Positions 2,208 through 49,247 of a stretch of DNA of 56,713 nucleotides are shown here, piece by piece; position 1 is the stretch's first letter, and each line of letters begins with the position of its first letter. A program made the translations under genes and the position numbers. The stretch comes from Spirogloea muscicola (lineage: Eukaryota; Streptophyta; Zygnematophyceae; Spirogloeales; Spirogloeaceae). The stretch is from NCBI GenBank assembly GCA_009602725.1, contig WELB01000001.1, forward strand, positions 2,189,046-2,245,758, in the 5' to 3' direction. The notes beneath the pieces were generated by a model, which saw nothing but the letters and a program-made list of their open reading frames with translations, did not search any database and was not told where the DNA came from.

Positions 2208-5200
2208 ATGAAGAGCTCCTGGAAGCGCCTGCGCCAGGCCGTGGCCTGCGGCGCCCAAGGCCCCGGCTCGCCCCTCCCCGCCGCCCGAGGCGACCCCTCC
2301 GGCGACCCCGTCCGCGACTGCGAGCCCTGCAAGACGCCCCGCCTGTCCTCGTCGGCAGCCGCCGCCGGCGCCGGCGTCGACTCCCGGGCCCTGGTGCCGG
2401 AAGCCGTGCAAGTCGGCGCTGAGAGCGACGACCACGGCATCGGCATGGGCGGCCGCAACACCTCCCAGCGGCAGCGTCCCGCTCAAGAGGGCTCTGGCGC
2501 CGAGACGGCTTCGACAATGGGAGGGACTGAGCAGCCAGGAGAGTTAGATGGCGAGGCGGCCAGCACGCGCGGGACGTCGACCAGGTCCCACAGCCGTCGC
2601 AACAGCCGCTCCAGCTCCACGTCTGCTGGTATTACTGCGCGGAGCCCCAAGGTGCGCTCATGGGTCATGCAGCACATGCAGTGTGCGGCCGCCCATTGGG
2701 CTGGACCGGCACGTTCAGCTTGTTTAGTGCAAGTCGCTCTCAGCGTTCAGGTGTGAGTCCTATGTCGTGTTGTCGACTTTCCCAGGTGCTTCATGTTTAA
2801 GTGCTGGGCACTTTAGGAGCGCATATTAACGACCTCCGCTGTCTCTCTCGACTCGTTTGACAGCGGGTGTGCTCCATCTGCCTGGAGACGCACAAGGCCG
2901 CCGGGCCAGGGCACGCGCTCTTTACGGCCGAGTGCGGCCACACCTTCCACTTCACCTGCATCACGTCCAACGTGAGGCACGGCAACACCTCCTGCCCGCT
3001 CTGCCGCACCACCTGGAAGGTGCTGCCCTGGATGGCTCCCCGCGCCAGTCAGGGCGTGCGTCCGAGCAGGGCCGAAGGCACTCCCACGCTGCCAAGGGCC
3101 CACTCAACTCAGCTGCGCCACTCCCGCGCCCAGGATCAGTCCTTCGTGTCCTTCAGTGAGGTATGCCAACGAGGCTCGTCAGGTCATGTGACAGCTCAAT
3201 TCTGCAGCCAGTTCCCGTCCTGTAGTAGACAATTGAGAGGCAACCTCTCATTAATGCCACCTGCTGCACTACAGATTCCGCTGGCGGGCATGGAGGATGC
3301 GAGAACAGAAGCAAGCTCTGCAAATGTGAGAAGTACAATCCTCCCACTTTATCAGCCCCTAAAGTTTGTGGAGTCTGATACTTCCACAGAAATTTACATC
3401 CACACGTCCCAGTGTACCAACGCATCGCGCCTGCGGTTCCTCCTGAAGTGGGCGTAAACATGCCAAAGCCAACAGTTACCTTGGACGTCAATTTGCACTT
3501 GCGACTTCCAGGCCAGCTGTCGGCGTTTCTCACTCGAGGTGCTTCTTTCTCGTAACACCACTGTTTGTGGATGCCTCTGGTCGGCGAACAGATGTTGGAT
3601 GTTACCGTTGTCGACGGCCGCTTCACCTCTGTGCACCGAGAGGAATTCCCTGGCGCGACTGTATTTGCATTCAACGATGACGACGAGCTGGTGCAACCGC
3701 AAGACCCAGCAGCTGCTGACTGCTCCAGAGATTCTGTGTCACATGTAGCGAGCAAGGGTTCAAGCCTGTTGCTGGCCTTGCAAGCTGAAGTGGACGTCGT
3801 GCCACGGGACGAGGCTCGGACATACTTCACAGTCCTGCTAAATATTCAGGCGCCAAAGTCGACTGTGTTGCAACTGCCGCCCCAGACCCCTCCTCCACAG
3901 CCGCAGCAGCTAGCTGCCGGGAGCCCCATGGATTACCAGGGCTCCATGAGTCTCTTGAGAGGGCCCTCTATGCAGATGCTCGACGCCTTTGAGAACGAGT
4001 CAGCTGACATGCTTGGTGCTGCATGTTCTCTTGACTTCAGCAAAATGCAGTCCTCCCCTGCCCCCGCCCCCACTACTTCGGACCCAATGGGAGCTGCACA
4101 CCAAACTGGGCTGGGCGTCTCAGAGAGGGTGACCATTGACTTGGTCACCGTTCTTGACATCAGCGGTAGCATGCTGGGTGAGAAGATGAAGTTCCTTAAG
4201 CAGGCAGTGGGCTTCCTTATGCAGGTTACTCAAACTGACAACCCTGGCATAGAAGCTTCTAATTTGGCACATGGTGCGGCTGTATTCAGAGGGCGAGCAC
4301 CTTCCCCTATGCAGCCTCCTTTACACATGGAGTACAGCCGACTCATATGACCAGCCATGCTGAACGATCTATGATGTGCAGATGCTTTCTCCAGGAGACC
4401 GTCTCTCCATTGTGGCCTTCTCGTCCACAGCCAGGCGAGTGCTAAGACTGAGGCGAATGGATGTGGATGGGAGAGCAGACGCTTGCGCTGCTATGGAGAA
4501 GCTGTATCCGCAAGGAGGAACCAACTTGACTGCGGGCTTGGAGAAAGCACTGATGATACTGAGGGACCGGAAGCACAGCAACACTGTGTCAAGCATCTTC
4601 CTCCTATCTGATGGCCATGACACCAGCTCACTCATCAAGCGTCGGTGGGTATAAGCCCCCCCTATCTCACCTGCCTAATAGTCGTCATATGCATGGCAAT
4701 CCCCTCCCTTGCACCTCCTCTCTACATCCCCCCTCCGTCCCCCATTGCAATTTGCAGTCCACTATTCACACAGCTCATCACCGACTGAGCTTGCAGAGAA
4801 GGAGCTCCACACTTTTCTGGCAAGGACACCGGAATTCTCAAGCAACTGAAGGACCTGCGGCAGGATGCTGTTGGGATGCATTCAACTGCCACCAAGGCCC
4901 ACATGTCGATCCACACTTTTGGGTTTGGGGCAGACCACGATTCAGGCACCCTGCATGCCGTAGCCGAGGTAGCAGGCGGCACATTTTCCTATGTGGAACA
5001 GGAGGAAGAGTTGCAGGATGCACTTGCGCAGACACTTGGAGGACTTCTGAGCCTTGCAGTGCAGGTAAATGAAGATTCTCCAGCCATAGATTTTACTTGT
5101 ACAGCATCACAGAGGCAGGAACACATAATACACACATTTGCCGCTTGTTTGTGTTTGCGCCCTCCCTCATGAGAAGGAGCTTTACGTTTGTAGGACGTGA

Positions 5201-22725: not shown

Positions 22726-23522
22726 CAGTGCCCACTTGGCACGAGCTTCTCCGCCGCCGCTGCGAGACGAGGGAAACGGGGACCGCCCAGTTGCTCCACC
22801 CGCGGACCAATGGCGCCGCAGGTTGGCGTCGCCCTGGCCGCCCGTCCCAAGCCACGGGAGCGGAGCCTGACGGTTGCTGGGGGGCCGACGCTCGCAGGGC
22901 CCGGCGCCGCCACGTGTCACGCACCCCGAGCCCGCGGCAAGGGAGTCGGAGGCGAGGGACTCCGCCCGGCACGCGGGAACGAGGATGACGGAAGGCGGGA
23001 TGCCAGCAAGGCGGCCCAGACACACGTGGCAGCCAAGCTGGCGGCCGATCGGCCCCCCCGCGCCGGTTCGGAGCGCGCGAGGCTGGGCGTCGACGCCGGC
23101 GCACGGCGGCCCAGCGAGCCATGGCGGCCCCCCCCCCCTCCTTCCCTTCACCTCCCCTGGCTCCTCCCTCCTCCCTCTCTCCTCTGCCTCAGCAGCCGCT
23201 TTCTCTCTCGCAGCGCCGCCTCCTAACTGCCGCCGGCGTAGCTCCAGTACGGCGCCGTGGCCCCTGCAGCCGCAACTTGCCGCGCATGCGCCTGCCGGAA
23301 GGGCGCCGAAGCTCGCCGACCGCGCCCCACAGCACGTCCCCTAGTGTGGCCGGCGCCGCCGCTGCTGCCGCCGCTCCGTTCTGCTCCTCCACCTGCTGCC
23401 CGCTTGAGCAGGCCGGCCGCAGCTCCACCTCGGCCGTCTCTGATACGACTTCTTGCAGCTGCGCTGAGCCGAGGCGTGGGCCCGAGCCGCATGCTCATGC
23501 AGGCGCCGGTCTCTGCGGCAGC
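22726..23522. other. GC-rich region upstream of the proline-rich protein gene
   Basis: Long frames are open on both strands because of GC bias. None shows a family motif. It probably includes the promoter and 5' UTR of the gene at 23523; an upstream coding exon in the 23121-23520 frame cannot be excluded. Confidence 0.4.
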
Positions 23523-24168
23523 ATGAGGCCACGCCGGCGCGCTCTCGGCGGCGAGTCCCAGCATCAGCCGTCCACAATAGTGGCAAAGACGTTTCTGCTG
23601 TGCGTCGTCGCCAGCGCCCTCGTTGTGGCCAGAAGCCAACCGCCGCCGCTGCCTCCGCCGCCGCCGCCGCCACCGCCGCCACCGGCGGGCGGCTCGGGAC
23701 AGCCGGGCCAAGCCGGAGGCCCGTCGCAGGTCACGGTGCAGGTGCAGGTGAATGCGACCGGCGGCGGCGGNNNNNNNNNNNNNNNNNNNNNNNNNNNNNN
23801 NAAGCCCCCCACCGCCACCAGTGCCGCCGCCGCCATCGCCGCCGTCCCGGCAGTCGCCACCGCCGCCTCCACAGCGGCCCCCCCGCCGGCGGCCTCCTCC
23901 TGCGCCAGCGCCCGCCTCGCCGCCGCCCATCATCATCCCCTTCCCCCCGACGCTGCCGGCCTCGGGAGGTGCCACTACATCGCTCAGTGGTTCTGGGCGC
24001 GCCAAAAGCAGCTCAGCTGGGACCGTGGCGGCAGTGTCGTCTGTCCTCTCCGTGGGAGCAGCAGCCGCGCTCATAACCGCAATCGCACTGGCCATCCGGA
24101 GGAGGCTGAGGGAGCAGAGCCCCGCGCAAGAGGACAGTGACGAGCAGGCGTTGCATGCACAAGTATGA
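23523..24168 (+). CDS. Proline-rich single-pass membrane protein, interrupted by a sequence gap
   Basis: I do not recognise a family. The ATG at 23523 gives an Arg-rich start and a signal-peptide-like segment (TIVAKTFLLCVVASALVVA). Next come a polyproline tract, a Gly/Gln-rich segment and VTVQVQVNATGGG up to the 41-base gap (23771-23811). Beyond the gap the reading frame is different (a gap-size effect): PPPPVPPPPSPPSRQSPPPP, PIIIPFPPTLPASGG, a Ser/Thr-rich stretch, then a transmembrane helix (VAAVSSVLSVGAAAALITAI) with a basic stop-transfer (IRRRLREQ) and a short acidic tail ending HAQV-stop at 24168. This layout suggests an extracellular hydroxyproline-rich domain anchored by one helix, as in many algal cell-surface proteins. 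No intron is needed. Confidence 0.55.
23771..23811. other. Assembly gap (41 N)
   Basis: The gap lies inside the proline-rich coding sequence. The reading frame differs on its two sides, so the true length is not 41 modulo 3 or sequence is missing. Proline-codon repeats on both sides explain the assembly failure. Confidence 0.95.
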
Positions 24169-24797
24169 CCACCCTCCTTACCTGAAGCCACTGCCTGACT
24201 GTGATAGGAACATGAGATCCGCCCACCTTTAGATAATGTCGTACTTTTTTTGTTCTTAGATCGGTACAAGGTCTGGCGTCTTAGCACACAAGAAGCCGTA
24301 GGAGCCCTCGAAGTGTAGAGCTGCCTGTAGTAATTGACGTGATCATTGCGTGTCACCATAGCATGGATCGACACTTAAGAATGCCTTAAGATGGGCGTAT
24401 AGCAGCATCACTGCACCCACCCACAAGCTCATCTGAGCAGCAACCAAGGCGTCAGGCTTATTTACGTTCATGCTCGACATTGATTTCGATGCAAAGAGTG
24501 ACGCGAAGCTTACATGGGCCAAAACGCTCAGGCAGTGCCAATGACATCACAGTATGCCCAGACGACGAACCAGCCTTCAGCTGCTCTACCAAAGCATGCA
24601 CAATGAAGGCCTCTCTTACCTTCAAGAGAGGCAGTTCTGGCCCTTGTACAATGCAAGGGCGTCCTACTTATTGCGAGTCAGTCCAATAAGAGCCGCTACC
24701 ACTTGCATGCAGGTCTATGGGCACCGTCCAATGAAAATTTAGACGAGCGAACACCCCTGCAGGTGTAGGCAATTTGCCATCTAAATGCTGGTCAGCA
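24169..24797. other. Convergent intergenic region
   Basis: This lies between the stop of the proline-rich gene (+) and the stop of the acetyl-CoA acetyltransferase gene (-). I see no exon, RNA gene or repeat module. Confidence 0.5.
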
Positions 24798-28217
<3,420 letters not shown>

Positions 28218-28424
28218 CTTAGGTGAAATAGGCCTCCACGGCCCCGCCGCAGGTGTAGGCGGCGACGAGCCTGGGCGCTCCTCTCGTTACGTTGCCACCA
28301 AGGCTATCGCCATGGAGGCGCTGCTAGACCAGGCGCGGCTGGCCGGCCAGGCCGTACCGTCGCTGCAGGCCAGCCAGGGGCACACCTCGAGGTTGCAGCG
28401 CGACGTGCGGCGGCCGCGCCCGCC

Positions 28425-28471
28425 TGTTGCCGTTGCCGTTGCCGTTGCCGTTTCCGTTGCCGTTTCCGTTC
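28425..28471. repeat. Hexanucleotide tandem repeat (GTTGCC/GTTTCC)n
   Basis: About seven to eight uninterrupted units of GTTGCC with some GTTTCC variants. It lies within the divergent promoter region; any peptide it would encode (Val-Ala repeats) is not part of a supported gene. Confidence 0.85.
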
Positions 28472-34369: not shown

Positions 34370-37300
34370 ATGCCCTGCAAGCTCCCAGCCCGTGGGGGAG
34401 GCAGCCNCCCTGCCCGGGGCTCGGCCTCCGACTGGCGGCGGCCGCCTTGGGCGGCCCTCCGCCCGCTCGGCCGTGCGCCGCAGCAGCCGTCGTCCCCCCC
34501 GAGGATGAAGATTTCCATGCAGCACTATGTGAGTTGATACCCAGGTCGCAGCCCAAGCTCCTGCTCGGCTGCTGCTGCACCGGGGCAAGCCTCTTGATCA
34601 CTGCGCAGCGCTGCGCCGCTTAGCGTCGTCGAGCATGCCGTGCCTGCAGGAGAGGCTGCGGAAGTTGGCGGAGAAGGTCAACTGGGACGGGACGGGGGTC
34701 GAGGTGCTGCCGCAGACCAGGGAGGTCTGCTCGGAGGTGAACATGCAGATGAAGCAGGTCAAGAAGTGGATTGCGAACCACAGGCCCAAGGTACGGGAAC
34801 GACCGCCGCTAGACTGGCACATGCGAATCTTGGCATGGTACAAGACAACGTTGAAGGGATGGCTTGACGGTCAATTGCACACTGCTTGTGTTTAAGCAGC
34901 ATGAATATCTACTAGCAGCTGATTGTCAGCATTGGAGCAACTTCTAGCGAAGATGATCTGTGAATTGTGGCAGTAGCAAGCGTACAAGTGCAGCTGGGCT
35001 GCTCTGCATGTGTGGCAAGATCACACAGGGATTGTGTGCAGGAAGACCCCATCAGCTCAACCTCAGACTCGCGCCCTCGATGATCTCGCGGCACCGGGCA
35101 TTGCAGAGCGAGGACAGTTGCTGTGGTGGGTCCAGGCCATCCTCCGCTTCTGGGCCAGCCCCGCCGAAGTTCGATGCCCGGAGCAGCGGCAAGGCAGCAC
35201 GGAACGAGACCCTGGAGGAGCTCCGGGCGAGGCTGGGCATGCGCCCCGGGGCGAAGCCAGACCTGAGCCTGGCCTTGGCCACGAGCCCCAGGAGCGTGCT
35301 CGAGCACCAGAGCTCGGTGGAACTGGAGGAGCCTGAGCTCGAGTCCTGCATCGACGAGGCGAGCCTGGACAACACATCGCCGCCAGGGCTCCCACCCTGG
35401 CCCTCGAGCTTGTTCCAGCTCGACTGCTCCGACTTCTCGATTGGCCTGCTGGCGGACGTGCCCGACACACCGACAGACCCCGACCCAGATCCAGATCCAG
35501 ACCCAGATTGCTCGGAGTCGGAAGCGTTGCCCCTGCCCGACGGCCTCACCATGCCAGACCTGGCTTCGTGGCTCCCGGCGCCCTTGCCTGCTCATAGCGG
35601 CCCAGACCTTGAGGCCAACGGCAACCTGAGCCAGTGGGGCGACTTGTATCGATGGCTCCCCCCGGCCTATGGGCCCTACAGCTGGCACGCGCCGTCAGCC
35701 TGCGGCAGCTGGAGCTGCCCGGCCCCTCATATTCAGAGACTGGGACTGACGCCCACTACGTCAGGGACAGGCTTCAGAGGCATGGGGCCTAAGGTCAGCA
35801 CAACTTCCTTCTTGGCTACTGACCTTGCAATGTCAGCAGAGTCAGTGTGTGCTAAGTATGGATTTCATCATCAGACACTGACTAGTGTTATCCATGTCGT
35901 GCAAGCAGAGCCAAATTGAGGCGGTCTTGTTCGAGAAGCTGCTGAGCCAAAGCGACACCAACCACCTCGGTCGCATCATACTTCCAAAGGTCTGTTACCT
36001 GAAGCAATAATCAAGCCAGCAATGATGAAGCTATATGCTGTGTTCTTGCTTTGAACATGACTGGCCAATCCAGACAATGGACGAACAAATAGTATTAGCT
36101 CAAAGGCATGTTATACAAGAGTCTGGCCGGCCACAACGAGCATGCATCTGCATGAGTGCCGTCCTCGGCGTTGACATTTGCAATTGGATTTGCTACGTTG
36201 CCGCATAGAAGTGGAAGGCAGCTCGTGTCAAGTTCAAACTTTGACATTTTAAAGCAGCATATGAACAACTTGATCCCATCCGCTTCCCAAGTTGCCCAGT
36301 GCAGGGTGCTGCTGAGCAATTTCTGCCCCACTGTGAAGACAAGGAGGGGCTGCACCTGATAGTTGAAGACAGTTGTGGTGGTCAGTGGTGTTTCCGTTAC
36401 AGGTATGTCCTACTGAAAACGAGGTCACAAGAGTAATCTCCAAGCATATAGCCCCTTATAGCATCCTACATTTGATGAACTTGCTGATCGACAAGAATTA
36501 CGCTAGCACTGAGAGTATGCAATCAGACGTGATGCCAAGGGCCGAGGAAGTTGGTTGCTGACAAAAGCTTAATCAAGCATGCCGGTTGCAACACAGGTAT
36601 TGGCCGAATAACAAGAGCAAGATGTATGTGCTGGAACAAGCAGGTCTCCTGCCTTCGCCAACCAAGCATGCAGCTGCTTTTAGATCTTATCAAGCACTAA
36701 ACTTGCTGAAAGTGAAGCCCAGTAATAGTGCAATGCATTTTCCTGCAGTGACGTAGTTTGGTGTCATTTTCTCGAGTAGAAAGCACTAGAGTTGCCACAT
36801 AGATTTCACGGTCCGAAAAGCCCTGGTTAACACAATCTGGTTGACAAAATGTGCTGTTTCACAATATCAACAACTTTTCTCGCTTGCAAATAGGTGACTA
36901 CATCAAAGCTCATGGACTGGAACGAGGGGACATTGTTGAGTTTTGCCGGTCTACCCATGGGCACTTGGTACTTCATCTGGCCTAGTGCATTCATATGCCG
37001 TCCTGTATGTACAATAATATAGATATCTTGAAGGCCATGGAAGAGATTAGCAACATAAGGACTCTTCTCGCCGTCGGTCATAGCTAAGCGTGACACTCTT
37101 CGGTCATGTGCAGGGGAGTGAAGCATTTGGCAATGGAAGCAGGGCCGCCTGACTTTTTGCTGTAGAAGGCAAGTTGCTTGAACACCGGCGATGATGTTTA
37201 CATACACTAATGCAGGTGCTCCAGGAAAAGAAAGGCGACCACAAGGAGTTCACGAAAGCGCCCTCAAGAGGACAACCTCTGTCAACGACAAAGCAAGCCT

Positions 37301-38575
37301 CGGGGTACGGACTGAAGAGGAAGGCACCTCCAACAGCGTCCAGTGTCCCGCTGGACCACCATCTCGAGGACAGGGCTTTCCAGGCGTGGCTGGACAGCGG
37401 CTCTCGCAGGTTGCCAGGAGCTTTGTCTGCGCTGTCTGCCAGCAAGAGCACCAGCCACGCCGACTTTGGAAGCTCGGCACTGCTGCCCGGGCACCACTGT
37501 GCACGGCAGTACAGCGGCAACTGCAAGCTGGATCAGCTGTTCCAAGATTCGCCAGACGCCCCGCGCTGCTCTCTGGAAATGGGCCAGGGCTCCTTCACAA
37601 TCAACATGGCAATGGAGCAAGACACTGCAGCTGAGGCGTTCCTGGACGGGTACCAGCTTGCGTGCGACCTGGACAAGCGGAGCACGTCGCCAGTCAAGGC
37701 CGACCTGATGGAACTTGATTGGGAGGTCGATCAGAAGCAGGTCGTCAAGCAGGAGCACATGCAGGCTGCTGGGGTCCTCTCCGACTTAGCCTGCAAGCAT
37801 GCCGAGGACGACGAAGAGGACCTCGTCGCCGAGCTGGTCCAGGAACCTCTCACATCACACAACGGACTGTCAGGTCTGGACGATCACTTGCTTTTAGGGG
37901 TTCACGTATCATCTGTTGCACAGACGGCATGGACTATATAAGAGATGGTAGGCTCTAGCTGATGTTCAATGCACCTCCTTGCCATTCAGAACGCAAGATG
38001 CGGACACAGGATCTCATATCCTTGCAGGCAAGGTAACAGCAACCGCTGCCTGTAGCACGAGGACAGAGTGCTTGCTGTCAGGTTACCTGAAATTCCACGA
38101 GATGAGCAAGTCCTGCGTTTTCTGCCCACATGCAGATCTCCCGACGTGGCTGCCGCTGGTACCACTGGATATATGCACTTCGCCGCCGTGCCCGCTAATG
38201 CAGCAGGATGAGGTGCCACTGAGGGCCAAGGAGCTGGTGCTGCCCAGCACGGAGGCGTGCTTGGAGATGCTCGGCATCTCGGCAGAGGGGGCTCCGACAG
38301 GTCAGCTGGACAGGCCTCCTGCGGAGGCAGACGAGATGACATCCGTGAGTGGTGATGTGTCGCCGGCAGCCGGCATGGCTGCTGTCCCGCAGGCGCCAGC
38401 GGAGGTCAACAACGTAGCTAGGGATGACAGGGAGGGGGGTGCTGGCGCCGCTGCCATGCTGTCGGAGGCAGGTCTGCCAACGGACATGAAGGAGGTGGTG
38501 CTACTGAGCGAGGTGCATCGAGCGCTGGAGGCAGCAAGCGACTTGGAGGAGGCCTGCAACGCTGGCTTAGACTGA
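34370..38575 (+). CDS. Transcription factor with ZF-HD-like homeodomain and LAV-type B3 domain
   Basis: Nine exons keep phase: 34370-34528, 34650-34790, 35029-35793, 35909-35989, 36305-36402, 36597-36643, 36894-36967, 37216-37873, 38136-38575 (820 aa). Residues about 44-100 are homeodomain-like: RMKISMQHYERLRKLAEKVN, TREVCSEVNMQMKQVKKW, then WIANHRPK (W93, N96, R98). Spacing and residues resemble the plant ZF-HD homeodomain (KFT...AEKLGW...FC.EVGV...VWMHN). No upstream ZF-HD zinc finger is visible. An acidic, proline-rich linker follows, with a run of DP dipeptides near residue 248. Residues about 356-460 are a B3 DNA-binding domain of the ABI3/FUS3 (LAV) type: VLFEKLLSQSDTNHLGRIIL, KEGLHLIVEDSCGGQWCFRY, RYWPNNKSKMYVLEQAGDYI and KAHGLERGDIVEFC. 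The C-terminal half is acidic and low in complexity, perhaps an activation region. The start and the acceptor of exon 3 are the least certain parts; an ATG at 35008 could start a separate B3 gene. Confidence 0.75.
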
Positions 38576-39345
38576 CCGCATCGCGGCCACCTGAGCAATG
38601 AAGCAAGCTGCAGATGACAAGCTGAGGGGCCCAGCCGCCATGCTTAGTCGAAGCAGCCAGCTGAGCACACCAATGCCCTCACAATCTGCAGCAGAGCGAA
38701 GTAGCTTCGACAGGCACTCACCACGGTCGTGCCTTCGGCAATCAGGCTGTGCATATCTTCCAGCTCGATGGACATTAGTGCCTCCATTGGTCATGGAAGC
38801 TGGAATAAGAAGACGGGCTTGAAGGACCCATGGCCAGGCAGACCGCAGTAGACAATTGCTGGCAGTAGCAACTTGCCTGCATCTCGAGACTACTTTAATT
38901 GTCAGCAATAACATATCTGTACCATGTCTAACAGAGTCAAGCATGAAAGAAGACGATGTGACAACTCTTGAAAACGACAAACTTATATTTGAGACTAAGC
39001 TCAGCATTTGGCATTGGCCCCGCGTTTGGAACCGGGCCCAACTTCTTTTGGTTGATTCCATGATTTCATCTCATTCTTGGATGGCAGCCTGGTCTTGGGC
39101 TTGCAGTTGGCACTGCTATTGTCTCGGGTACCGGCGTTTCTATGGTTGGCTGGCGGATCGGTCATACAAGCCACGAAGCACGGAGCAGCAAAATAAACAA
39201 CATAAAGTCAAGCTAAGGGCAGCAAACGGGGCCATGCTTGCTTTGGCTTTCCTGAACAGAGTGTTTGTTTCATGCGGCCTCCTTTGCTTCATGCACACCG
39301 AGCGCCGTTTCTTTCTCCCTTTGGCAAGAGCTGCTTCTTTCCCTG
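38576..39345. other. No gene seen
   Basis: This is the 3' flank of the homeodomain-B3 gene. A long plus-strand frame (38856-39677) crosses it but runs on through an H1 hairpin and LINE UTR sequence, so I treat it as chance. Confidence 0.45.
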
Positions 39346-39349
39346 TTGA

Positions 39350-40173
39350 GCAGCCGGAGGTCAGAGAAACTAGTTCCTGGCTTCGGGTCCCTGTCTATAG
39401 CCAGAGGTTGCAGCCACGGCGCGATCAGGACGCAGATCACGCGCGTATGCCTTCGGACCGCTGCGGCAAAGCAGACGGGAAGGGTACTGCGGCAACACCA
39501 ACTGCCACATGCGACGCAGCTGGGCTGGAACAAGAAGGAGAAAGTGCTCGCCCATTGAGAATAGGGGCTGGAAAAGCCAGCCCAAAAAAGAATGAACAGA
39601 GGACGAGAAGGGGGCCAGGGAAGCGCTACAAAAAACAAGCAAACAGAGAAATAAAGCAGCTACAAATCACTCAGTAACCTCTGCTAAGCAGCCGCAGGTC
39701 GGAGATGCTGGGCTCGTGGAAGTGGGTCCCCTGGCCCACAGAGCCAGAGGCAGCAGCAAGGGCTCTGGCAGTGGCTGGTTGGATCTCCTCCAGCGGCTTG
39801 CCCGGGAGGCCATCGAGCGGCGGCAGGGTTCGCCAGGCTTCAATGCTGCCGGCTCCCTCTCGCAGGTCTTTCGGATGAGGCTGGCGGTCTCGCTGCAGCG
39901 CTGTTTGGCTCATGCGGTCCACGCGCGGGCTGGCCGTGCTATGGCTGCTGCTCCCGGGTCTCGGCAAAGTGCCGCTTCTCCTGCTCCGAGTTACTCTGAT
40001 CTGCTGTTGCTCACACGTGGGTACTGAGCAGCCATCTGCATCTCCCTCTGCACCATCTTGCACTTTGTAGTGTAGTCCTTTTTCAGCACCTCTTTCTTTG
40101 GCTTTGAACATTGTCCATTCTTTTTGGGTTGGCTTTGCCAGCCCCTCTTCTCAATGGGCGAGCACCTTCTTCT
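39350..40173. repeat. Inverted LINE-tail composite bounded by H1 hairpin modules
   Basis: Order on the plus strand: a minus-oriented tail end (SFSDLRLLNR, about 39350-39400); an H1 module (39533-39600); a minus-oriented 3' UTR and tail ending LLSRGY (39601-39775); then at about 39775 a switch to a plus-oriented tail (WLDLLQRLAREAIERRQG, AGSLSQVFRMRLAVSLQR, HARAGRAMAAAPGSRQ, SYSDLLLLTRGY, stop at 40025-40027); a plus-oriented UTR; and a reverse-form H1 module (40108-40173). Two tails are therefore joined 5' to 5', and the whole is a large imperfect foldback with hairpins at both ends. Confidence 0.75.
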
Positions 40174-40373: not shown

Positions 40374-42885
40374 ATGGCGTGCCGCGACGGCGACGGCGCC
40401 GCCAGCCCTCCGCTCGCGGCCGCTGCCGCCNNNNNNNNNNNNNNNNNNNNNNNNNNNNNNNNNNNNNNNNNNNNNNNNNNNNNNNNNNNNNNNNNNNNNN
40501 NNNNNNNNNNNNNNNNNNNNNNNNNNNNNNNNNNNNNNNNNNNNNNNNNNNNNNNNNNNNNNNNNNNNNNNNNNNNNNNNNNNNNNNNNNNNNNNNNNNN
40601 NNNNNNNNNNNNNNNNNNNNNNNNNNNNNNNNNNNNNNNNNNNNNNNNNNNNNNNNNNNNNNNNNNNNNNNNNNNNNNNNNNNNNNNNNNNNNNNNNNNN
40701 NNNNNNNNNNNNNNNNNNNNNNNNNNNNNNNNNNNNNNNNNNNNNNNNNNNNNNNNNNNNNNNNNNNNNNNNNNNNNNNNNNNNNNNNNNNNNNNNNNNN
40801 NNNNNNNNNNNNNNNNNNNNNNNNNNNNNNNNNNNNNNNNNNNNNNNNNNNNNNNNNNNNNNNNNNNNNNNNNNNNNNNNNNNNNNNNNNNNNNNNNNNN
40901 NNNNNNNNNNNNNNNNNNNNNNNNNNNNNNNNNNNNNNNNNNNNNNNNNNNNNNNNNNNNNNNNNNNNNNNNNNNNNNNNNNNNNNNNNNNNNNNNNNNN
41001 NNNNNNNNNNNNNNNNNNNNNNNNNNNNNCCGGGACTTCCGGTGGTTCCTGCAGAGGAGCTATGTCCTCAAGAAGTCCCTGTGTGGAATTCTAGAAGGTA
41101 TATGCCTGTCCTCTGAAGCTATATCTTCAGAAACTTCCTGTATGGGAACTGGAGAAGGCACAATTAGGACGCTAGGGTACACAGTGGGAGCTGCCGTGCT
41201 TCCAGGGTGCTGTCAGTATCTGCATGTACTTAACTCGCCAGGACTGCAGCATGTTGAACTTAGCAGTAAGTACTGTAGTCGTTCCCTTTTGTACAAAAGA
41301 GGGTGGGTTGTTATGCTTTGGCAAGTTGCTATGCCAGTCTATCAGGCCATGTCAGTCTAGCATGTATGCCCTTTAGTATGTGACTCGGTTCCAAATGACA
41401 GGAAATATATGGTCAACCCTAATCTTAAGATCCCTAAATGAGAACCCCTGGAGGGGGGGGAGGGGGGGTTGGGGGGGGGTGATGAGGTGGGGTGGGGGGG
41501 ACCTAGCTAGCTGCTCTTGGCTAAGTCCTAATGGCGAAGTTGCTTTGCAGAAAGCAGTGTGCTGAATGGAGGTTGTTTAGTAGCTTCTTGCTAACTCAGT
41601 ACTATCTGACTGGGTGCAGAGTGTGATGAAACCGTCGACTTTTTCTTCTATGACACCTCTCCCTTTGTTAGCGAATATCACCACAAGAACTATAAAGAAC
41701 ATATGATGGACTGGAGGGGTTTAAAGAGCGACAACTGGACGGCTCAGCTTAATGCACAAGTGGAGGTAGGAATTCACATTGCCATCTTTGGAGAGTTATT
41801 CCGAGATACTGCTCCTTGTTGACATTGTTGGGTTGATTTATCTTGAGTCTCAATTGTCCATGTCAGGTGAGCTGGACCCTTAGAAAGTGCAGCCAAGCAT
41901 TAAAGATCCAACAGTTAGAAGCAAGGCATGCAGTTTGTTAACTAACACAGTCATGTGTTAGTGCTTGCATCCAATAGCGACAAGGCTGAACATGCAATTT
42001 GCTTACTTGTGAAGTCAACGCTGCATGGTGTGAGACAAAGCTGTTCTCGTTTGTCTTAGCAGGAGCTAAGAGAGGCGCTTAACCAGTCCAGAGGCAGATT
42101 CAAGATAGTTATTGGTCACCATCCTATTTTCAGCTACGGCCACCATGGTGACACTGAAGAGCTAGTTGACCAGATCTCACCTTTATTGGAGGTGCATGCC
42201 CCGCTGTTCAGCGCATGCTGGCATGCCTGCGTCATATTATGTCACTCATGCGGTTTCACAGAAAGCTGGAACTGTTGAGGCAAATATATCTCCATTTTGT
42301 CGCCAGGATAAGGGGATTTCCAAGTAGAAGCTGCGAATCTGCACATGCACTCCTCTCCACCTCCGTTTTAAATTGTTCCTTCTCACCTTCTGTGAACTTT
42401 GCAGGAGTACAAGGTAGATCTGTACATGAATGGCCATGATCACGACTTGCAACATGTGAAGAAACCAGACAGGTGTACAGGATGCACCATCTTGATGATT
42501 CGCTGACACACCCATGTGTGTCTTTTTAGTGCTTGAAGTATTGCCTGCAGTTGAAGCTCTTCTGAGCATGGAATGAGATCGTTGTTGTCAATATAGCTGA
42601 GCTCAAAGTTATGCCGCTATTTTGAGCAGGTACACTCATTTCATCAACTGCGGAGGTGGATCCAAAGCTTGGCACCATGGTGACCCTCGCCTGCCAGACG
42701 ATCAATACCCCAAAGATCTCAAGTACTTCTACAACGGCCAGGGTTTTGCATCCCTACTAGTGACCAGGGAGGAGCTGCGTCTCCACTTTCACACGCTTGA
42801 GGATGACACAGCATACAGTTTACGCCTCGATAGCGACAGGAGGACAGACATGAGGAGAGGCAGCCATGGACTTCTATTGGCCTAG
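40374..42885 (+). CDS. Purple acid phosphatase (metallophosphoesterase), first part in a gap
   Basis: The start is probably ATG 40374 (MACRDGDGAASPPLAAAAA), which runs into the 599-base gap 40431-41029. Visible exons, all in phase: up to 41097 from the gap edge, 41620-41765, 42063-42191, 42405-42472, 42630-42885. Motifs: RDFRWFLQRSYVLKK, DETVDFFFYDTSPFV, FKIVIGHHPIFSYGHHG (metal-binding His block), YMNGHDHDLQHV (last metal-ligand block) and NCGGGSKAWHHGDPR, then FYNGQGFASL. These match low-molecular-weight (TRAP/ACP5-like) purple acid phosphatases, which use a dinuclear iron centre to hydrolyse phosphomonoesters. The first metal ligands (the GDWG, GDNFY and GNHD blocks) must lie in the gap, so activity cannot be judged. 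The C-terminus runs about 25 residues past the last conserved strand. The intron 41098-41619 holds a strong G-run. Confidence 0.88.
40431..41029. other. Assembly gap (599 N)
   Basis: The gap starts inside the GC-rich first exon of the phosphatase gene and ends inside a later exon. It hides an unknown number of exons carrying the N-terminal half of the catalytic domain. Confidence 0.95.
41452..41500 (+). repeat. G-run with G-quadruplex potential in a phosphatase intron
   Basis: It has at least five runs of four or more G (lengths about 8, 7, 9, 4 and 7) with loops of one to about nine bases, on the transcribed gene's coding strand, between 41098 and 41619. Confidence 0.8.
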
Positions 42886-44299
42886 TCTGACAGGCATCCA
42901 GGCTGTCTATCTACAAGCTCCAATAGGTACATTTAAAGTTAAGCAGTCACCAATAGCAGTCAAGGCTAGTTGCATTCATGTCATGTTTGCTCCTAAGGGG
43001 AAGGAGGCAGAAGAGGCCAGCCCAACAGCAAGAATAGAGTTTGGCGAGCAGCACCAATAGCAGAAGTTGTCTGATGTAGCATCATCCACAGATACTGCAA
43101 ATGACTCTTAGCTTGTAGACTCGCAGGGAGTGTCTGACAACGCCCACCAATCCCACCTCCCATCCTCTCTAGGGTCCAGTTTTCTCCACATTCTTTGCAA
43201 TTATTTATTGCCTGGGCTTGGGAGCTGCGCTCTCACATTATCAATCATTCTTAGCCTGGGCCTGGGAGCTGTGCTCTCACATTAACAGTCATTTCACGCA
43301 CTTCGGCTGGCCTCCATATCCACTCTACAAATTGGTGAGAGCTTGCTAACTGTCTCGCAAACATATGACTACCTTTTTGTGAATATCAGCTAATGATTTG
43401 TCTTTAGGACAATAAGGAAAAGCCTGAAGCTCTTGTCCCCCTTGTTGTGATATATGCCCACGTGTTCTATGTCTACATCTAGACCCATGGGTTTCGGAAA
43501 TAGGTGTGAAATATTCTCCATAACATTGTGTGCTTTCACACAAGCTGTTGCTTTACATATGGTGTCGATCCTCCAATTCGATGGTAGAATCTTGAGAGCT
43601 CATAGATAGTTGTCACTCAGGAAGCATGTACTGAACTTTGTGCCTCAGAAGCACCTCCTACTGTATCTCTCAAAGCTGTCTATAGTGGCCAATGCATGCA
43701 CTCTGTATGCTACATCAATCATGGTCTAATTGTGACAGTTTTCACGCCTTCTGCTCTCACCTCTGCTCTAGTTTCGTTTGTCGGCAATGTGATGTACCTC
43801 ACATATCATTGTTCTGAATTGGCTTATGACGTGGTTTGGCACCCGACACTATATGGCATGACAGCTGCTTCTCAGTACCTGGGCATGGAGAGCTGGATAT
43901 CATATTGATGGGCAGAGGACAAACGAGAACGAGCCTCGTTGAAGCTCGTGTCTGTGTGCAGATCAGCTTCACTGGACGGATTCTAGCACCAGCTGCACCC
44001 ACAAATTGCCTGCCTGAAGGAGCAAACAGCTAGGCATACCAAGACTTGACAAAAGCTGCCCACAAAGCAATGACAAGGCTGCCTGTGGCACAAAGTGATG
44101 CAAAACCCGCAAGCAAGCCCAACAGGGCTTAGCCTCCAAGTCAAGCCTCAGGACCCCTAACGTAGTCAGGAGTGGTCAGACCCAAGACAGCCAAAGACCA
44201 CACGTGTTACCTACTAGCGCAACATGCAGCAAGTCTGCAGGGTATAAATAATCACTGCGAAGGAATTCTCCAGCATTAATTATTGCTGTTTAAATAAAA
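42886..44299. other. Convergent intergenic region
   Basis: This separates the stops of the phosphatase gene (+) and the histidyl-tRNA synthetase gene (-). Two partial copies of CCTGGGCTTGGGAGCTG / CCTGGGCCTGGGAGCTG, each followed by GCTCTCACATTA, lie at about 43210-43282, a local direct duplication. Nothing else was recognised. Confidence 0.5.
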
Positions 44300-47200
44300 T
44301 CATAGCTCCCTATTTGGTCGAGAAGTTCGCAAGTGATCCTGCAAAACTGCGACCAAAGAATCCACTGCTATGCTACTTTCTGTCCTTTGAATCAAGTCTT
44401 TGATTTTCACTTCCCCCTTGTCTAATTCGTCAGACCCAAACAGCACCATCCATGGGATGCCCTGCCATCAAAAGAACAGTGCTTTCATTACCTTCAATTT
44501 GTTTTGATGCTAAAAAACCTTTCAAGTTACGCTGCAGGGAAGCATATTACATGCAAGTTGGCACGTAAGACATGCCAAGTCGAAGCTACGCTCACACAAC
44601 TTTGTCTGTCTATACCTATCTGTAGCTTCTTGTTGAGATCGAAGTGCAAGGCACAAAATACCGACATTAAGATTGAGTACTCTTTGCAGGACATGGCATA
44701 GGCACACATAAGCTAATCATTTGTGGCTGACCTGCTTATTAGCAAACTCGAGCTGCTTCTGCAGGTTGGGCGATGCTGCAAACACAAACTCTGCCTTAAT
44801 TCCTGCTGCCCAGAGCTTCGTACACAACTCCATACGTTTCCGAAGAAGGTCAGGCCCAATGCTGGCAATCAGTACCTCTGTCTGAGTACTCCGTATCAAC
44901 TGCAACCAAAGCGATATCATGTCTTTCAGCGAGCATAACACGTCAGCTGTATATCATGTTGGGGTCAAAGTCCTGAGTTCCGCAGCACAAGCATTGAGGC
45001 ATCAGGCAGCAGAGGGGCTGAGCTACTTTTGCTGCAATTCGGGCCACAACTACATTTCCATAGCGTCATCTACTAAGATCACAACCATCTTCAGTTGTTC
45101 GAAGTAAGTAAACCATAGTAATCAGAGGACATGGACATCTCCTGATGTAATTGTTGCCATTGCTGTTAAGCTCACTACCTCGCTTCGTTGACACTCAAGA
45201 TCCTCCATGATAGAGAACACTCGCTCAATGCCAAGTGAGACACCCACAGCAGGAACCTGTACCCAGATGCCCAAGCACTTGCTCAGAATTGCTGGGGCTA
45301 TGTGTATCAAGATAGCTCATAACACGGAAGAGGCAATGCATACTACATCTAGCAAGCATGACAAACAAACAGGCAAGACATGCTCCTACAGAGGAGCAGT
45401 ACAAGATTTAGCGGACGGACATACCTGCTTCCCGCAAAACATGCCGACCAGATTGTCATATCTCCCTCCAGCTGCAATTGATCCTACCTGCTCCATGGGA
45501 TATGATTTATGTAGCCAACCAGCATTCCGGCAACAAACATAGCACCTGGTGTTGGCTAAAGATAGGCACACAAATATCAAGCTGGCGGACTGTCATGGTG
45601 AAGCTCGTCCCAAGCTGTATACCTGTGATTCGCCTTTGAAGACAGCCTCGTATATGACTCCAGTGTAATAGTCAAGCCCTCGAGCCAAGCTCAGGTCAAA
45701 GACAATGCGGCCCAGGCATTGAAAGGATTGCAGGTAGCCGAAAAGCAAGAAGAGGTCCTCCAGAGCTGCCAGCGACTCTTTGTGGCCGGCAAATGGCCCG
45801 TCAGGAGACCTGAGCTCCTGCAGAAGCGAGAGTGGCTCGCCCCGCTTGGAGACAAAGGTCCCTATCCTGTCAGCGACATCTACTGGCAGGCCCTTCTCAT
45901 TCACCTGCCAGACCAAGTCGTGAACAAACACCTCAATGGATGTCCCTCTTATCCTTCCACAAGCATGACAGCGGAATGCCGTCTCTTTGCACACTTGGAT
46001 TACTCGGCATGCATGACAACTTGTAGATCTGGCTCTGATTATGGGACTATTACAGGCATGTTGCGAAAAGCCCCACTAGCCTATTGCACCCACTGCTCTC
46101 TTGTCAACCCTCTTTGCACTCGAGCACCGAGGGGCAATGGCATCAGACCATCTCAGCTCGAACATCTTCCCAGGACTCCTTGTCAAGCTTGTCAATAGCT
46201 GAGCAGATGGCGCGGAATCTGGTAGGTGGAACACCGCAAATGTCCAGCATGCCGTCCAGCAATCGTCTGTGGTTCAGCTTTATCTGGAGCACTCTTGATC
46301 AGACAATGCTTGCTTCGTAAGCATCAAGCTTGTAGAAGAGCAAACAAGTACGCATGCCGGCATAGCCATGGCAATGGAGGACACAACTTCCTTGCAGGAA
46401 AGCAACGCAGACCATCGGGCTCAGGGCTGACCTCAAACTCCCCGATACTGAGCTCCTCCAGGATCTCCGTGATGACTTTGAGGATTTCAGCATCAGGTAC
46501 CATGGGGATGTAGGTGCCTGCAATGTCAAAGTCGCACTGGTAGAATTCACGGTATCTACCCTGGTTCATCTGAGGATTATCTCGTCTGTACACCTGCAAA
46601 TTTGTGGCACACAATGAGCAGGTAAGAGAATATTAGTGTGATGGTTAAAAGAGGCTGGGTTACTGCTGGTTACATCTGTTGACATGCAATGAGGGTGCCA
46701 GTGAGGCTCACTCGAGCAATGTGGTACCGCTTGATGTTCCCCACACTGTGCATCGCCAAGTACCTCGCAAAGGGTACTGTCAGGTCGTAGCGTAGGGACA
46801 GAATCTCTCCTCCCTGAGAAGAAATTGATTGGCACGCAAGAGAGACATTCGACATCAACAGGTGCAGGCTTTGCAGTGTCTGCTCTGCAACAGCACTTGA
46901 CTACTGCCTGGAAGCGGCACTGAAGAGCTGCAACGTTCATGCTCGCTGGCATGGAAAATCATCTGGACCTGATCTGCGAGGTCATAGATGAGCTTGGAGT
47001 CCTCGCCGTACTTGCCCATGAGGGTTTCCCGCAGCTCGAACACGGGGGTGTCCAGCGCCACGCCCCCGTGACGCTTGAATACAGCCGTAATGATAACAAA
47101 GGCCTTCTCGCGGATTGCCATCTGGTCCGGCAAGAAATCTCTAGTGCCCTGTATACAAGGAAGAGGCAGTATTACAATGAGCAGTGCTGAGCTTGCAGCA

Positions 47201-49247
47201 AGGCGCATGATGATATAGGCTTTTCTAAGTACAAATGCTGGGCACACATCTCCTCTCCAGTGCATGTGTGACAGACCTTGGGAATCTTGGGCACGCGCCG
47301 GGCCTCATTGCTTTCCAGCGCCGCCTGCAGGGCCACTAGATGCTCCTGCATGCTCTCGCTCTTCGCGTCCAAGGCTCCATCAAGCGCCTCCACCTGTGCG
47401 GTCAGGCCCGAGCCGCGGACACCTTGGAGCACGCCTTCGAGGTACTGCCGCACCAGGGCCGTGCCCTTGCCAAGCAGTCCGCTACCCCCACCTCCAGTGG
47501 TGTTGCCGCCCTTGCCCTTCTTTCCGCTGCCCTCCTTTCCCCGCCCTACACCGCCGCCCTTCCGCTGCTCGCCAGCCCCAACCTCGGCCCGTGGTGCAGT
47601 GTCCGAAGCATCCTTGCCAGCAGATCGTGCTGCGGTGCTGGCCTCCCGGCTCTTCAGGAGCTGGAGGCTGGCAACGGCCTCCAATGCAGAAAGCTCTCGC
47701 GCCAGGTCCAAGCAGGCAACACACTTGCGCGCGGCGAGCACCGCCGGCAGGCCACCGCCGTCGACGAGGTCGGCCGCCGAGATGGCTGAAGACACCTCAT
47801 CAGCCGCCGACTGAATGGCTGCCACAGTCTCTGAGGCAATGCCCAGGGCGCCAGAGAGCTCCGCTGCCGAGAGCTCGCCTCCAGGCTGCGCCTGGTACAA
47901 GTACAGAAGGTGCCGGCACTGGCGGCCATCACCTCCAGCGCAAAAGCTCCAGCACACTGACAAATGGCCTGATGTGTGAACACTAGCAACTCCAGGTCCT
48001 GCACCCATCGCTGCGGCCTCACCTCGTGCCGCGACAGGACCTCGATGACTTTGGACGTGCGGCGCACGCTGCTGGAGGCCAGGGGCACGAGCGAGCGAAG
48101 GAGGCCGGTGACGTGCGTCGCCACCAGCGGGCAGGGGATGAAGGTGCTGCCCAGCTTGCCATTCGAGGCAGCATCAGCGGCATCGGTTGCCCCGCTGAGC
48201 TCGGCCTTGACGCTGCCAGCAACCGACTTCAAAGCCTCCCGTACTGCACTTCAGAAAAATGCGCGGCAGGTCGTATGAGGCCACTGGAGATCTGTATGTC
48301 ACGCTCGCCAGAGCCCCGACGTACCTGCTGCAGCTATGATGGATGCAGCCCCATGAAGCCTTTCGCAGCATGCACATCAACCAGCCTACATTGGGGGACA
48401 ACCAAGACACGCCTTCTGCAGAGGCATGACAACTGTGCAAGCCGTGGAGCGCGTGCACACCTAGGCCGTGGCACTGGGGGAGGGCATTGATGGCGGCGAG
48501 GCTGACGCCGTCCTTGCGAGGGTTGACGAGCTTGGAGCCGGCCAGGAGAGCGCGGAGCTCCGAGGCGGCCTCGGCCTGTGACTTGTGCACCGGGCCCTCA
48601 GCGCCGCCGCCGAGGTCGAGAGCAGCCGTGTAGGCCTGCAGAGCCTCGCAGGACAGCGCCGCAACGCCGTCCGCCGCACGCAGCAGCACTCGCGCGTCGT
48701 GGACCGCCAGCGCCGCCACGCCGGCGCTGGCGGCGGCGGTCTCAAGCAGAGCGCGGTGCTCGGCCGCCGTGACGCCGGAGGGCGCCGCGGCCAGGATCGC
48801 TGCCAGCGCTGCTAGCACGGCCAAGTCCCCGTCGGCAGCCGGCAGAGTCGGCGGCGGCGGCCCGCCGGAGGCGCCGAGAAGGGCGGCGAGGCCGTTGACC
48901 AACGCCGGGCGGACTCCGCGCCCGGGACCGCCCCGGAGCAGCGCAGCCAGCACCGCCGTCGCGACAGCACGCGCCTGCTCTGGCGGCAGCGCTGGCTGCG
49001 CCGGCGGCCCGTCGTGGCCGTCCTCGACGCCGCCGCCGTCGCCGTCGATGTCGAGCTTGGCAAAGCCGCCACCATCCTCGCCAGCCGTGCCGACGCTGCG
49101 CGCCAGCCTCGCGAGCGCGGCGGCGTCGGGCACGGCGGCGTGGCCCAGCACGGCGACGGCGAACACGTCCTCCAGCGCCAAGGCCCCGACGCCCACGGCC
49201 ACGGCGGGGGCGCGGCCGGCGCCGCCGCCGGCGTCCGCAGCGGCCAT
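44300..49247 (-). CDS. Histidyl-tRNA synthetase with plant-type N-terminal extension
   Basis: Exons in phase: 49247-48461, 48243-48023, 47891-47277, 47148-46969, 46813-46712, 46593-46432, 46283-46149, 45904-45623, 45487-45425, 45256-45179, 44899-44732, 44461-44300 (about 984 aa). An extra exon about 47999-47932 is possible. Residues from about 535 form the class II catalytic core: [55 protein letters not shown], motif 2 VYRRDNP...[15 protein letters not shown], the HisA motif [15 protein letters not shown] and the HisB motif [13 protein letters not shown]. The anticodon-binding domain ends the protein ([16 protein letters not shown]). The first 530 residues match the long Ala/Leu-rich extension of plant cytosolic HisRS, related to the aromatic-lyase fold ([27 protein letters not shown]). 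A Lys/Gly-rich linker ([13 protein letters not shown]) precedes the core. Confidence 0.9.

What the first reader, a model, noticed from the sequence alone, without database searches (positions are those of the whole stretch)
34370..38575. A homeodomain fused to an ABI3/FUS3-type B3 domain
Seen: exons 1-2 encode a homeodomain-like block (KISMQHYERLRKL, TREVCSEVNMQMKQ, VKKWIANHR) and exons 4-8 encode a complete LAV-type B3 domain, joined in phase through a 255-residue acidic linker. Known: ZF-HD homeodomains normally follow a zinc-finger dimerisation domain, and LAV B3 proteins carry other N-terminal domains (acidic/B1/B2, PHD-like or CW). I know of no described protein with both. Inference: a composite transcription factor with two DNA-binding modules, either a lineage-specific fusion or an ancestral architecture later split. 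No zinc finger precedes the homeodomain, so dimerisation would differ from ZF-HD factors.
Basis: partly seen in the sequence, partly recalled or inferred. Interest (0 to 1): 0.8.

Follow-up and report, generated by a model that had tools for sequence, protein, structure and literature searches.

The report
Algal homeodomain–B3 fusion transcription factor
A gene in what looks like a close algal relative of land plants appears to encode one protein with two different DNA-binding domains, a homeodomain and an ABI3/FUS3-type B3 domain, and a second diverged copy of the gene elsewhere in the genome keeps the same arrangement.

Summary
Window 34370-38575 (+) carries nine exons with GT-AG introns that encode a divergent homeodomain, an acidic linker, an AFL/VAL-type B3 domain and an acidic tail (794 aa). 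The main evidence is a second copy in a collinear segment of the same genome (contig C85). Both copies keep all nine exons in frame, with Ka/Ks 0.12-0.13 in exons 1-3 and no amino-acid change in B3 exons 4-7. The conserved in-phase acceptor is at 35106, so the linker is 229 residues, not 255. The homeodomain misses Pfam's cut-offs and the ZF-HD model's cut-off, but matches that model at E 4.7e-6. B3 groups with FUS3/LEC2 rather than VAL (support about 91, ten sequences). Gene families in threes suggest a zygnematophyte, perhaps Spirogloea (inferred). No paper describing this domain pair turned up in the searches named. No transcript was available, so two adjacent genes are not excluded.

The parts
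34370..34528 (+). Exon 1: N-terminal segment (ATG at 34370 or, in better context, ATG at 34505) ending MKISMQHY, the start of the homeodomain; the part before 34505 may be 5' UTR
   Evidence: donor GTGAGT conserved in C85 copy; base 34407 is N
34650..34790 (+). Exon 2: rest of the homeodomain (ERLRKLAEKVNW...VCSEVNMQMKQVKKWIANHRPK)
   Evidence: TIGR01565 E 4.7e-6 for the joined segment; exon 2 alone 24.2 bits, E 0.005 in the genome scan; Ka/Ks 0.12
34791..35106 (+).
   Evidence: 269 of 308 compared bases identical, 15 gap columns, 13 of 39 substitutions at third positions
35107..35793 (+). Exon 3 (corrected start): 229-residue acidic, Pro/Ser-rich linker
   Evidence: acceptor TTGCAG|AGC identical and phase 0 in both copies; Ka/Ks 0.12; 25 of 35 substitutions at third positions, one 3-nt gap
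35909..35989 (+). Exon 4: start of B3 domain (SQIEAVLFEKLLSQSDTNHLGRIILPK)
   Evidence: Ka 0
36305..36402 (+). Exon 5: B3 domain
   Evidence: Ka 0
36597..36643 (+). Exon 6: B3 domain (YWPNNKSKMYVLEQAG)
   Evidence: Ka 0
36894..36967 (+). Exon 7: B3 domain (GDYIKAHGLERGDIVEFCR)
   Evidence: Ka 0
37216..37873 (+). Exon 8: end of B3, KRK basic patch, acidic tail
   Evidence: Ka/Ks 0.29
38136..38575 (+). Exon 9: C-terminal tail and stop codon
   Evidence: acceptor at 38135 conserved in both copies; Ka/Ks 0.45

Best explanation
One gene encodes one nuclear transcription factor: an N-terminal divergent (ZF-HD-like) homeodomain, a 229-residue acidic linker, an AFL-type B3 domain and an acidic tail. 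Shown here: the open spliced frame, the two domains by sequence, and conservation of the whole arrangement in a second diverged copy. Inferred: the B3 domain reads RY-type sites (CATGCA) with modest affinity, because it has the R-R-P beta4 triad that in ABI3 goes with attenuated binding and a multi-domain architecture. The homeodomain adds a second contact, to DNA or to a partner protein, so that only sites offering both are bound well. The acidic linker and tail recruit the transcription machinery. The gene is probably the AFL-side B3 gene of a zygnematophyte alga.
For: All nine exons are in frame with GT-AG introns in both copies; Ka/Ks 0.13 (exon 1), 0.12 (exon 2), 0.12 (exon 3), no nonsynonymous change in exons 4-7, 0.21 over 777 codons. 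Substitutions fall at third codon positions in 32 of 44 cases in exon 1 from 34504, exon 2 and exon 3, against 13 of 39 in intron 2, Fisher p 4e-4; adding the 5 substitutions of the possible UTR part of exon 1 gives 35 of 49. The second copy lies in a collinear segment, so a mis-assembly or retrocopy is unlikely. TIGR01565 E 4.7e-6. In a genome scan at E up to 1 that model gave 4 matches from 4 scored candidates: two strong ZF-HD homeodomains and the two fusion loci. hhalign to ZF-HD: 53 columns, probability 72.7; to HD-ZIP-like: 22 columns, 55.1; to WOX-like: 0.2. B3 groups with FUS3/LEC2 against VAL plus RAV/NGA, SH-aLRT 91.1, UFBoot 91. Beta4 triad mapped and PMC8136769 (passages).
Against: No transcript spans intron 2. 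An in-frame ATG at 35080 and a 34-codon read-through of exon 2 to a TAA are open in both copies; the read-through has no indel and Ka/Ks about 0.49 on 10 differences. The homeodomain is below Pfam and TIGR cut-offs, and TIGR01565 also gave a sub-cut-off match in 1 of 14 bacterial control genomes, so weak matches to it can be chance. By recalled homeodomain numbering it keeps W48, N51 and R53 but has Ala at 50 and Pro at 54, which may weaken DNA reading. Pairwise scores against other homeodomains of the genome are as good as against its ZF-HD (C273 z 6.5, C209 z 5.1, ZF-HD C31 z 4.2; C31 z 3.8). The exon 2 structure prediction did not show a clear homeodomain.
Confidence: 0.75

Rival explanations
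1. Two adjacent genes: a small homeodomain-only protein ending in the read-through of exon 2 (TAA at 34893-34895), and a B3 gene whose protein starts at ATG 35080.
For: The 34-codon read-through and ATG 35080 are open in both copies.
Against: The read-through looks closer to non-coding than the exons do (3.5 synonymous and 6.5 nonsynonymous differences, Ka/Ks about 0.49; 3 of 10 substitutions at third positions). Codons 35080-35106 carry 1 synonymous and 3 nonsynonymous differences. These are small numbers. ATG 35080 has a weak context (T at -3). A phase-0 donor and acceptor are kept in both copies.
Confidence: 0.13
2. The N-terminal block is a homeodomain by descent but no longer binds DNA; it serves protein interaction, and the B3 domain does the DNA reading alone. 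(Compatible with one fused gene, so not exclusive of the best explanation.)
For: Low profile scores; Pro at position 54 and Ala at 50 by recalled numbering; the homeodomain match ends at the exon border.
Against: Exon 2 is conserved (2 nonsynonymous differences in 47 codons) and the recognition-helix residues W, N and R are retained.
Confidence: 0.35
3. Both outcomes occur: alternative splicing or start sites give a fusion protein and a B3-only or homeodomain-only isoform. (Not exclusive of the best explanation.)
For: Open alternatives in both copies.
Against: Little sign of coding constraint in the intron 2 segments.
Confidence: 0.15

Closest known systems
AFL B3 factors of land plants (ABI3/VP1, FUS3, LEC2)
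   Same: B3 domain of the same type (FUS3 E 2.7e-27; grouping), ABI3-like R-R-P beta4 triad, acidic region and a long N-terminal part before B3
   Different: Has an N-terminal homeodomain; that block does not resemble ABI3's B1 domain (recalled sequence, 636 of 2000 shuffles as good); long tail after B3; SKMY where FUS3, LEC2 and VAL1 have SRMY
VAL/HSI2 B3 repressors
   Same: Related B3 domain (VAL1 E 1.3e-24)
   Different: B3 groups away from VAL1; the genome has three separate VAL-like loci on C234, C256 and C168
ZF-HD (PLINC) homeodomain factors
   Same: Homeodomain matches TIGR01565 over nearly its whole length
   Different: No zinc-finger dimerisation domain found; score far below the family cut-off; B3 domain attached
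RAV/TEM and ARF proteins
   Same: Known precedents of B3 joined to another domain (AP2 in RAV, Tudor-like and PB1 in ARF; passages of PMC11685440)
   Different: Different partner domain and a different B3 subfamily

Membership tests
B3 superfamily | B3 domain above Pfam gathering score | tested here: met
   44.2 bits against 30.1
AFL (ABI3/FUS3/LEC2) B3 | B3 groups with FUS3/LEC2 rather than VAL | tested here: met
   SH-aLRT 91.1, UFBoot 91 on 10 sequences of about 100 residues (90.2/90 with a recalled ABI3); small sample, moderate support
AFL (ABI3/FUS3/LEC2) B3 | ABI3-type B1 domain N-terminal to B3 (FUS3 and LEC2 have reduced architectures: PMC8136769 passages) | tested here: inconclusive
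   only the homeodomain block was compared with a recalled B1 (z 0.38: no resemblance); the rest of the linker and B2 were not tested
AFL (ABI3/FUS3/LEC2) B3 | binding to RY element CATGCA | not testable with these tools
   no assay
VAL/HSI2 | N-terminal Cys-rich block and CW domain (features recalled) | tested here: not met
   Pfam up to E 10 finds only B3 in the 820-aa reader model, which contains all 794 residues of the corrected one
ZF-HD (PLINC) | ZF-HD dimer zinc finger before the homeodomain | tested here: not met
   none in the model; in the genome PF04770 gave 3 matches up to E 1, none over cut-off, best E 0.147; exon-by-exon search with N runs, so absence in the genome is not proven
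ZF-HD (PLINC) | homeodomain of the ZF-HD class | tested here: inconclusive
   TIGR01565 E 4.7e-6 but 26.4 bits against cut-off 57.45; hhalign best to ZF-HD; pairwise z not highest to ZF-HD
homeodomain superfamily | Pfam Homeodomain or Homeobox_KN above gathering score | tested here: not met
   13.9 against 22.9 and 16.8 against 24 bits; note that the genome's two strong ZF-HD homeodomains (C31, C207) are also absent from the PF00046 list and the PF05920 list
homeodomain superfamily | three-helix fold with W48, N51, R53 | tested here: inconclusive
   residues present (numbering recalled); exon 2 model from a single sequence, mean pLDDT 75.9, helices 2-9 and 21-44 only

The most novel reading that the evidence does not exclude
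This is the zygnematophyte sister of the land-plant AFL regulators (ABI3/FUS3/LEC2). AFL factors then predate land plants, and the ancestral AFL protein had its own homeodomain, so site choice was built in by a second DNA-binding domain before land plants replaced it with bZIP partners recruited through their own N-terminal domains.
Probability: 0.18. Interest if true: 0.8.

Novelty: new variant of a known kind. Interest (0 to 1): 0.6.

Why it matters
RAV and ARF are B3 factors that combine B3 with other domains (PMC11685440, passages). A conserved homeodomain-B3 pair would be another such event, with two DNA-binding modules in one protein. If its B3 is the algal counterpart of AFL, it bears on how the regulators of seed maturation and desiccation arose, since a 2017 survey reported no AFL sequences in chlorophytes and charophytes (PMC5379062, passage; its table lists one charophyte species).

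Tried and rejected
Homeodomain block as a relative of ABI3's B1 domain: rejected (z 0.38, 636 of 2000 shuffles as good; NCBIfam gave the B1 piece no homeodomain hit). Third copy of the gene: not found by DNA search; two flanking segments match only C1 and C85 at length, with short partial matches on other contigs (5, 1). RY motifs as a sign of autoregulation: 4 in the 1 kb upstream against 90 in 56.7 kb; CATGCATG 6 in the window, expected 2.38, 4 of 100 shuffles as many; not pursued. Structure of exon 2 alone: model too poor, no fold search made. Zinc finger beside the ZF-HD homeodomains on C31 and C207: no PF04770 match there in the genome scan; C31 is preceded by an N run of 4.7 kb. Papers on the domain pair: listings (titles, abstract starts); passages only of PMC11712027, PMC11685440, PMC9915684, PMC11547041, PMC12385726, PMC5379062, PMC8136769 and PMC12185132. 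None of what I saw describes a homeodomain with B3, but most subscription papers are not held, and the Spirogloea genome paper was not held.
Full report
What is there. The gene lies on the + strand of the window. Pfam up to E 10 finds B3 in it (E 1.9e-11, residues 363-453) and nothing else. The closest solved structures to the B3 domain are FUS3 (E 2.7e-27), VAL1 (1.3e-24) and LEC2 (3.2e-22). The homeodomain segment alone gives sub-threshold Pfam hits (Homeobox_KN 0.0063, DUF919 0.017, Homeodomain 0.049) and weak PDB hits (NANOG 0.14, ZF-HD 1wh5 0.46; a designed repeat protein at 2.7e-5 rests on repeated short matches). Against NCBIfam its one hit is TIGR01565 homeo_ZF_HD, E 4.7e-6, positions 7-57 of 58, 26.4 bits against a curated cut-off of 57.45; the second copy gives 1.3e-5, and in the whole corrected protein the hit is E 0.00037.

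The second copy. A search of the genome (153 Mb, 471 contigs) with the homeodomain gave four matches at two loci: the window and contig C85. The C85 locus is collinear with the gene, window 34400-39642. Its surroundings match window 23305-28446 and 41554-48715 in the same order, reversed, at 83-89% identity; the window stretch before the gene faces an N run in C85 (searches list N runs; the comparison is). It is therefore a duplicated chromosome segment, not a retrocopy or a mis-join. A DNA search with the gene found only these two loci.

What the copy shows. All introns are GT-AG in both copies. Exon 3 cannot start at 35029: in C85 the same acceptor runs straight into TGA, and a 1-nt deletion follows. 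The stretch 35029-35106 has 65 of 77 bases identical plus a gap. The acceptor TTGCAG at 35106 is identical in both copies and in phase 0 with exon 2. With this start both copies read through (window 794 aa; the C85 copy's first residues fall in an N run). Ka/Ks is 0.13, 0.12 and 0.12 for exons 1-3; exons 4-7 have no nonsynonymous change; exons 8 and 9 give 0.29 and 0.45; overall 0.21 over 777 codons, Ks 0.16. Most of exon 1 (31 codons, 2 synonymous and 2 nonsynonymous differences, and a 6-nt in-frame insertion in C85) could be 5' UTR; its last eight codons changed only at third positions, 3 of 3. Substitutions fall at third positions in 32 of 44 cases in exon 1 from 34504, exon 2 and exon 3, against 13 of 39 in intron 2, Fisher p 4e-4. 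The 5 substitutions of the earlier part of exon 1 were left out of that test; with them it is 35 of 49.

Against one gene. ATG 35080 is in frame in both copies, and exon 2 can be read on for 34 codons to a TAA in both, without an indel. The read-through has 3.5 synonymous and 6.5 nonsynonymous differences (Ka/Ks about 0.49), codons 35080-35106 have 1 and 3. That is less constraint than in exons 1-3, but the numbers are small and only transcripts can exclude these readings.

Which homeodomain. TIGR01565 scanned over the genome at E up to 1 gave 4 matches (4 of 4 candidates scored): two strong ZF-HD homeodomains (C31, C207; 66 bits) and the two fusion loci (24.2 and 22.8 bits, E 0.005 and 0.014 from exon 2). 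The same scan gave a sub-cut-off match in 1 of 14 bacterial control genomes. None of these four loci is among the 14 PF00046 matches or the 17 PF05920 matches, so Pfam's models also miss the genome's own ZF-HD homeodomains. hhalign favours ZF-HD (probability 72.7, 53 columns) over four HD-ZIP-like sequences (55.1, 22 columns) and three WOX-like ones (0.2) (class names of these are mine); the two control sets used 7 of the 15 loci fetched. Simple pairwise scores do not favour ZF-HD: of 16 homeodomain pieces tested, C273 (z 6.5), C209 (5.1), C111 (4.4) and C12 (4.2) score as well as ZF-HD C31 (4.2), and seven others score under 2. Against 1wh5 and a NANOG segment, both picked as PDB hits, z is 8.9 and 10.3. 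So homeodomain descent is well supported; the ZF-HD class is likely but not settled. No ZF-HD dimer domain passes its cut-off in the genome (best E 0.147).

Which B3. In a tree of 10 sequences the window B3 falls on the FUS3/LEC2 side, against VAL plus RAV/NGA (SH-aLRT 91.1, UFBoot 91; 90.2/90 with a recalled ABI3). A genome search with the B3 domain gave 22 matches: 10 in the two fusion loci, 6 in C234, C256 and C168, and 6 weaker ones on C136, C80, C49, C107, C133 and C208. The second group joins VAL1 in the tree and has, about 2.4 kb upstream, a CANGKC...CNACGY block that I recognise from memory as VAL-type (the genes were not modelled). Of the third group I translated C136 and C107, which look RAV-like. 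[quoted passage not shown] The window B3 reads RYRYWP where LEC2 has KYKFWS, that is the R-R-P triad that PMC8136769 (passages) links with attenuated binding in ABI3. It has SKMY where FUS3, LEC2 and VAL1 have SRMY.

Organism. Several families occur on three contigs each, for example the VAL-like loci at 86.7-89.7% identity over their main blocks and B3 hits C136/C49/C80 (grouping mine). PLINC is reported from the common ancestor of Klebsormidiales and Phragmoplastophyta on (PMC11712027, passage). A whole-genome triplication is reported for Spirogloea muscicola (PMC11547041, passage), a zygnematophyte. The identification is my inference.

Mechanism. The B3 domain most likely reads RY elements with modest affinity. 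The homeodomain supplies a second contact, to DNA or to a partner. The linker (19 D, 14 E, 4 K, 10 R in 229 residues) and the tail probably activate transcription. Only the architecture and its conservation are shown; the rest is inferred from the families.

Verdict. Real, corrected in one exon border, and an unusual domain pairing. It is a new variant of known transcription-factor kinds rather than a new kind.

Noticed in passing
L007 (C85 copy), intron 3, reverse-complement positions about 3093-3203: An insertion of about 111 nt that repeats the intron end and much of exon 4 in a broken form: a local partial exon duplication absent from the window copy.
   Followed up: partly
window 1982, 9600, 22206, 33646, 39566, 40121: A dispersed short element GGCTGGNNNNGCCAGCCCAAAAA: 6 sites with up to 3 mismatches against 0.06 expected; similar translated strings recur in other loci of the genome.
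   Followed up: partly
window 23305-48715: Matches C85:333881-359400 in reverse order at 83-90% identity in several pieces; no third copy found although other families occur in threes.
   Followed up: partly
L008 and L009 (C31, C207): Two canonical ZF-HD homeodomains with no ZF-HD dimer match on their contigs in the genome scan; C31 is preceded by a long N run.
   Followed up: partly
L010, L011, L012 (C234, C256, C168): Three VAL-like B3 loci with a CANGKC...CNACGY block about 2.4 kb upstream of the B3 exon, 86.7-89.7% identical in their main blocks.
   Followed up: partly
window 34791-34895: Read-through of exon 2 is open to TAA in both copies and has no indels; a possible retained-intron isoform.
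   Followed up: partly
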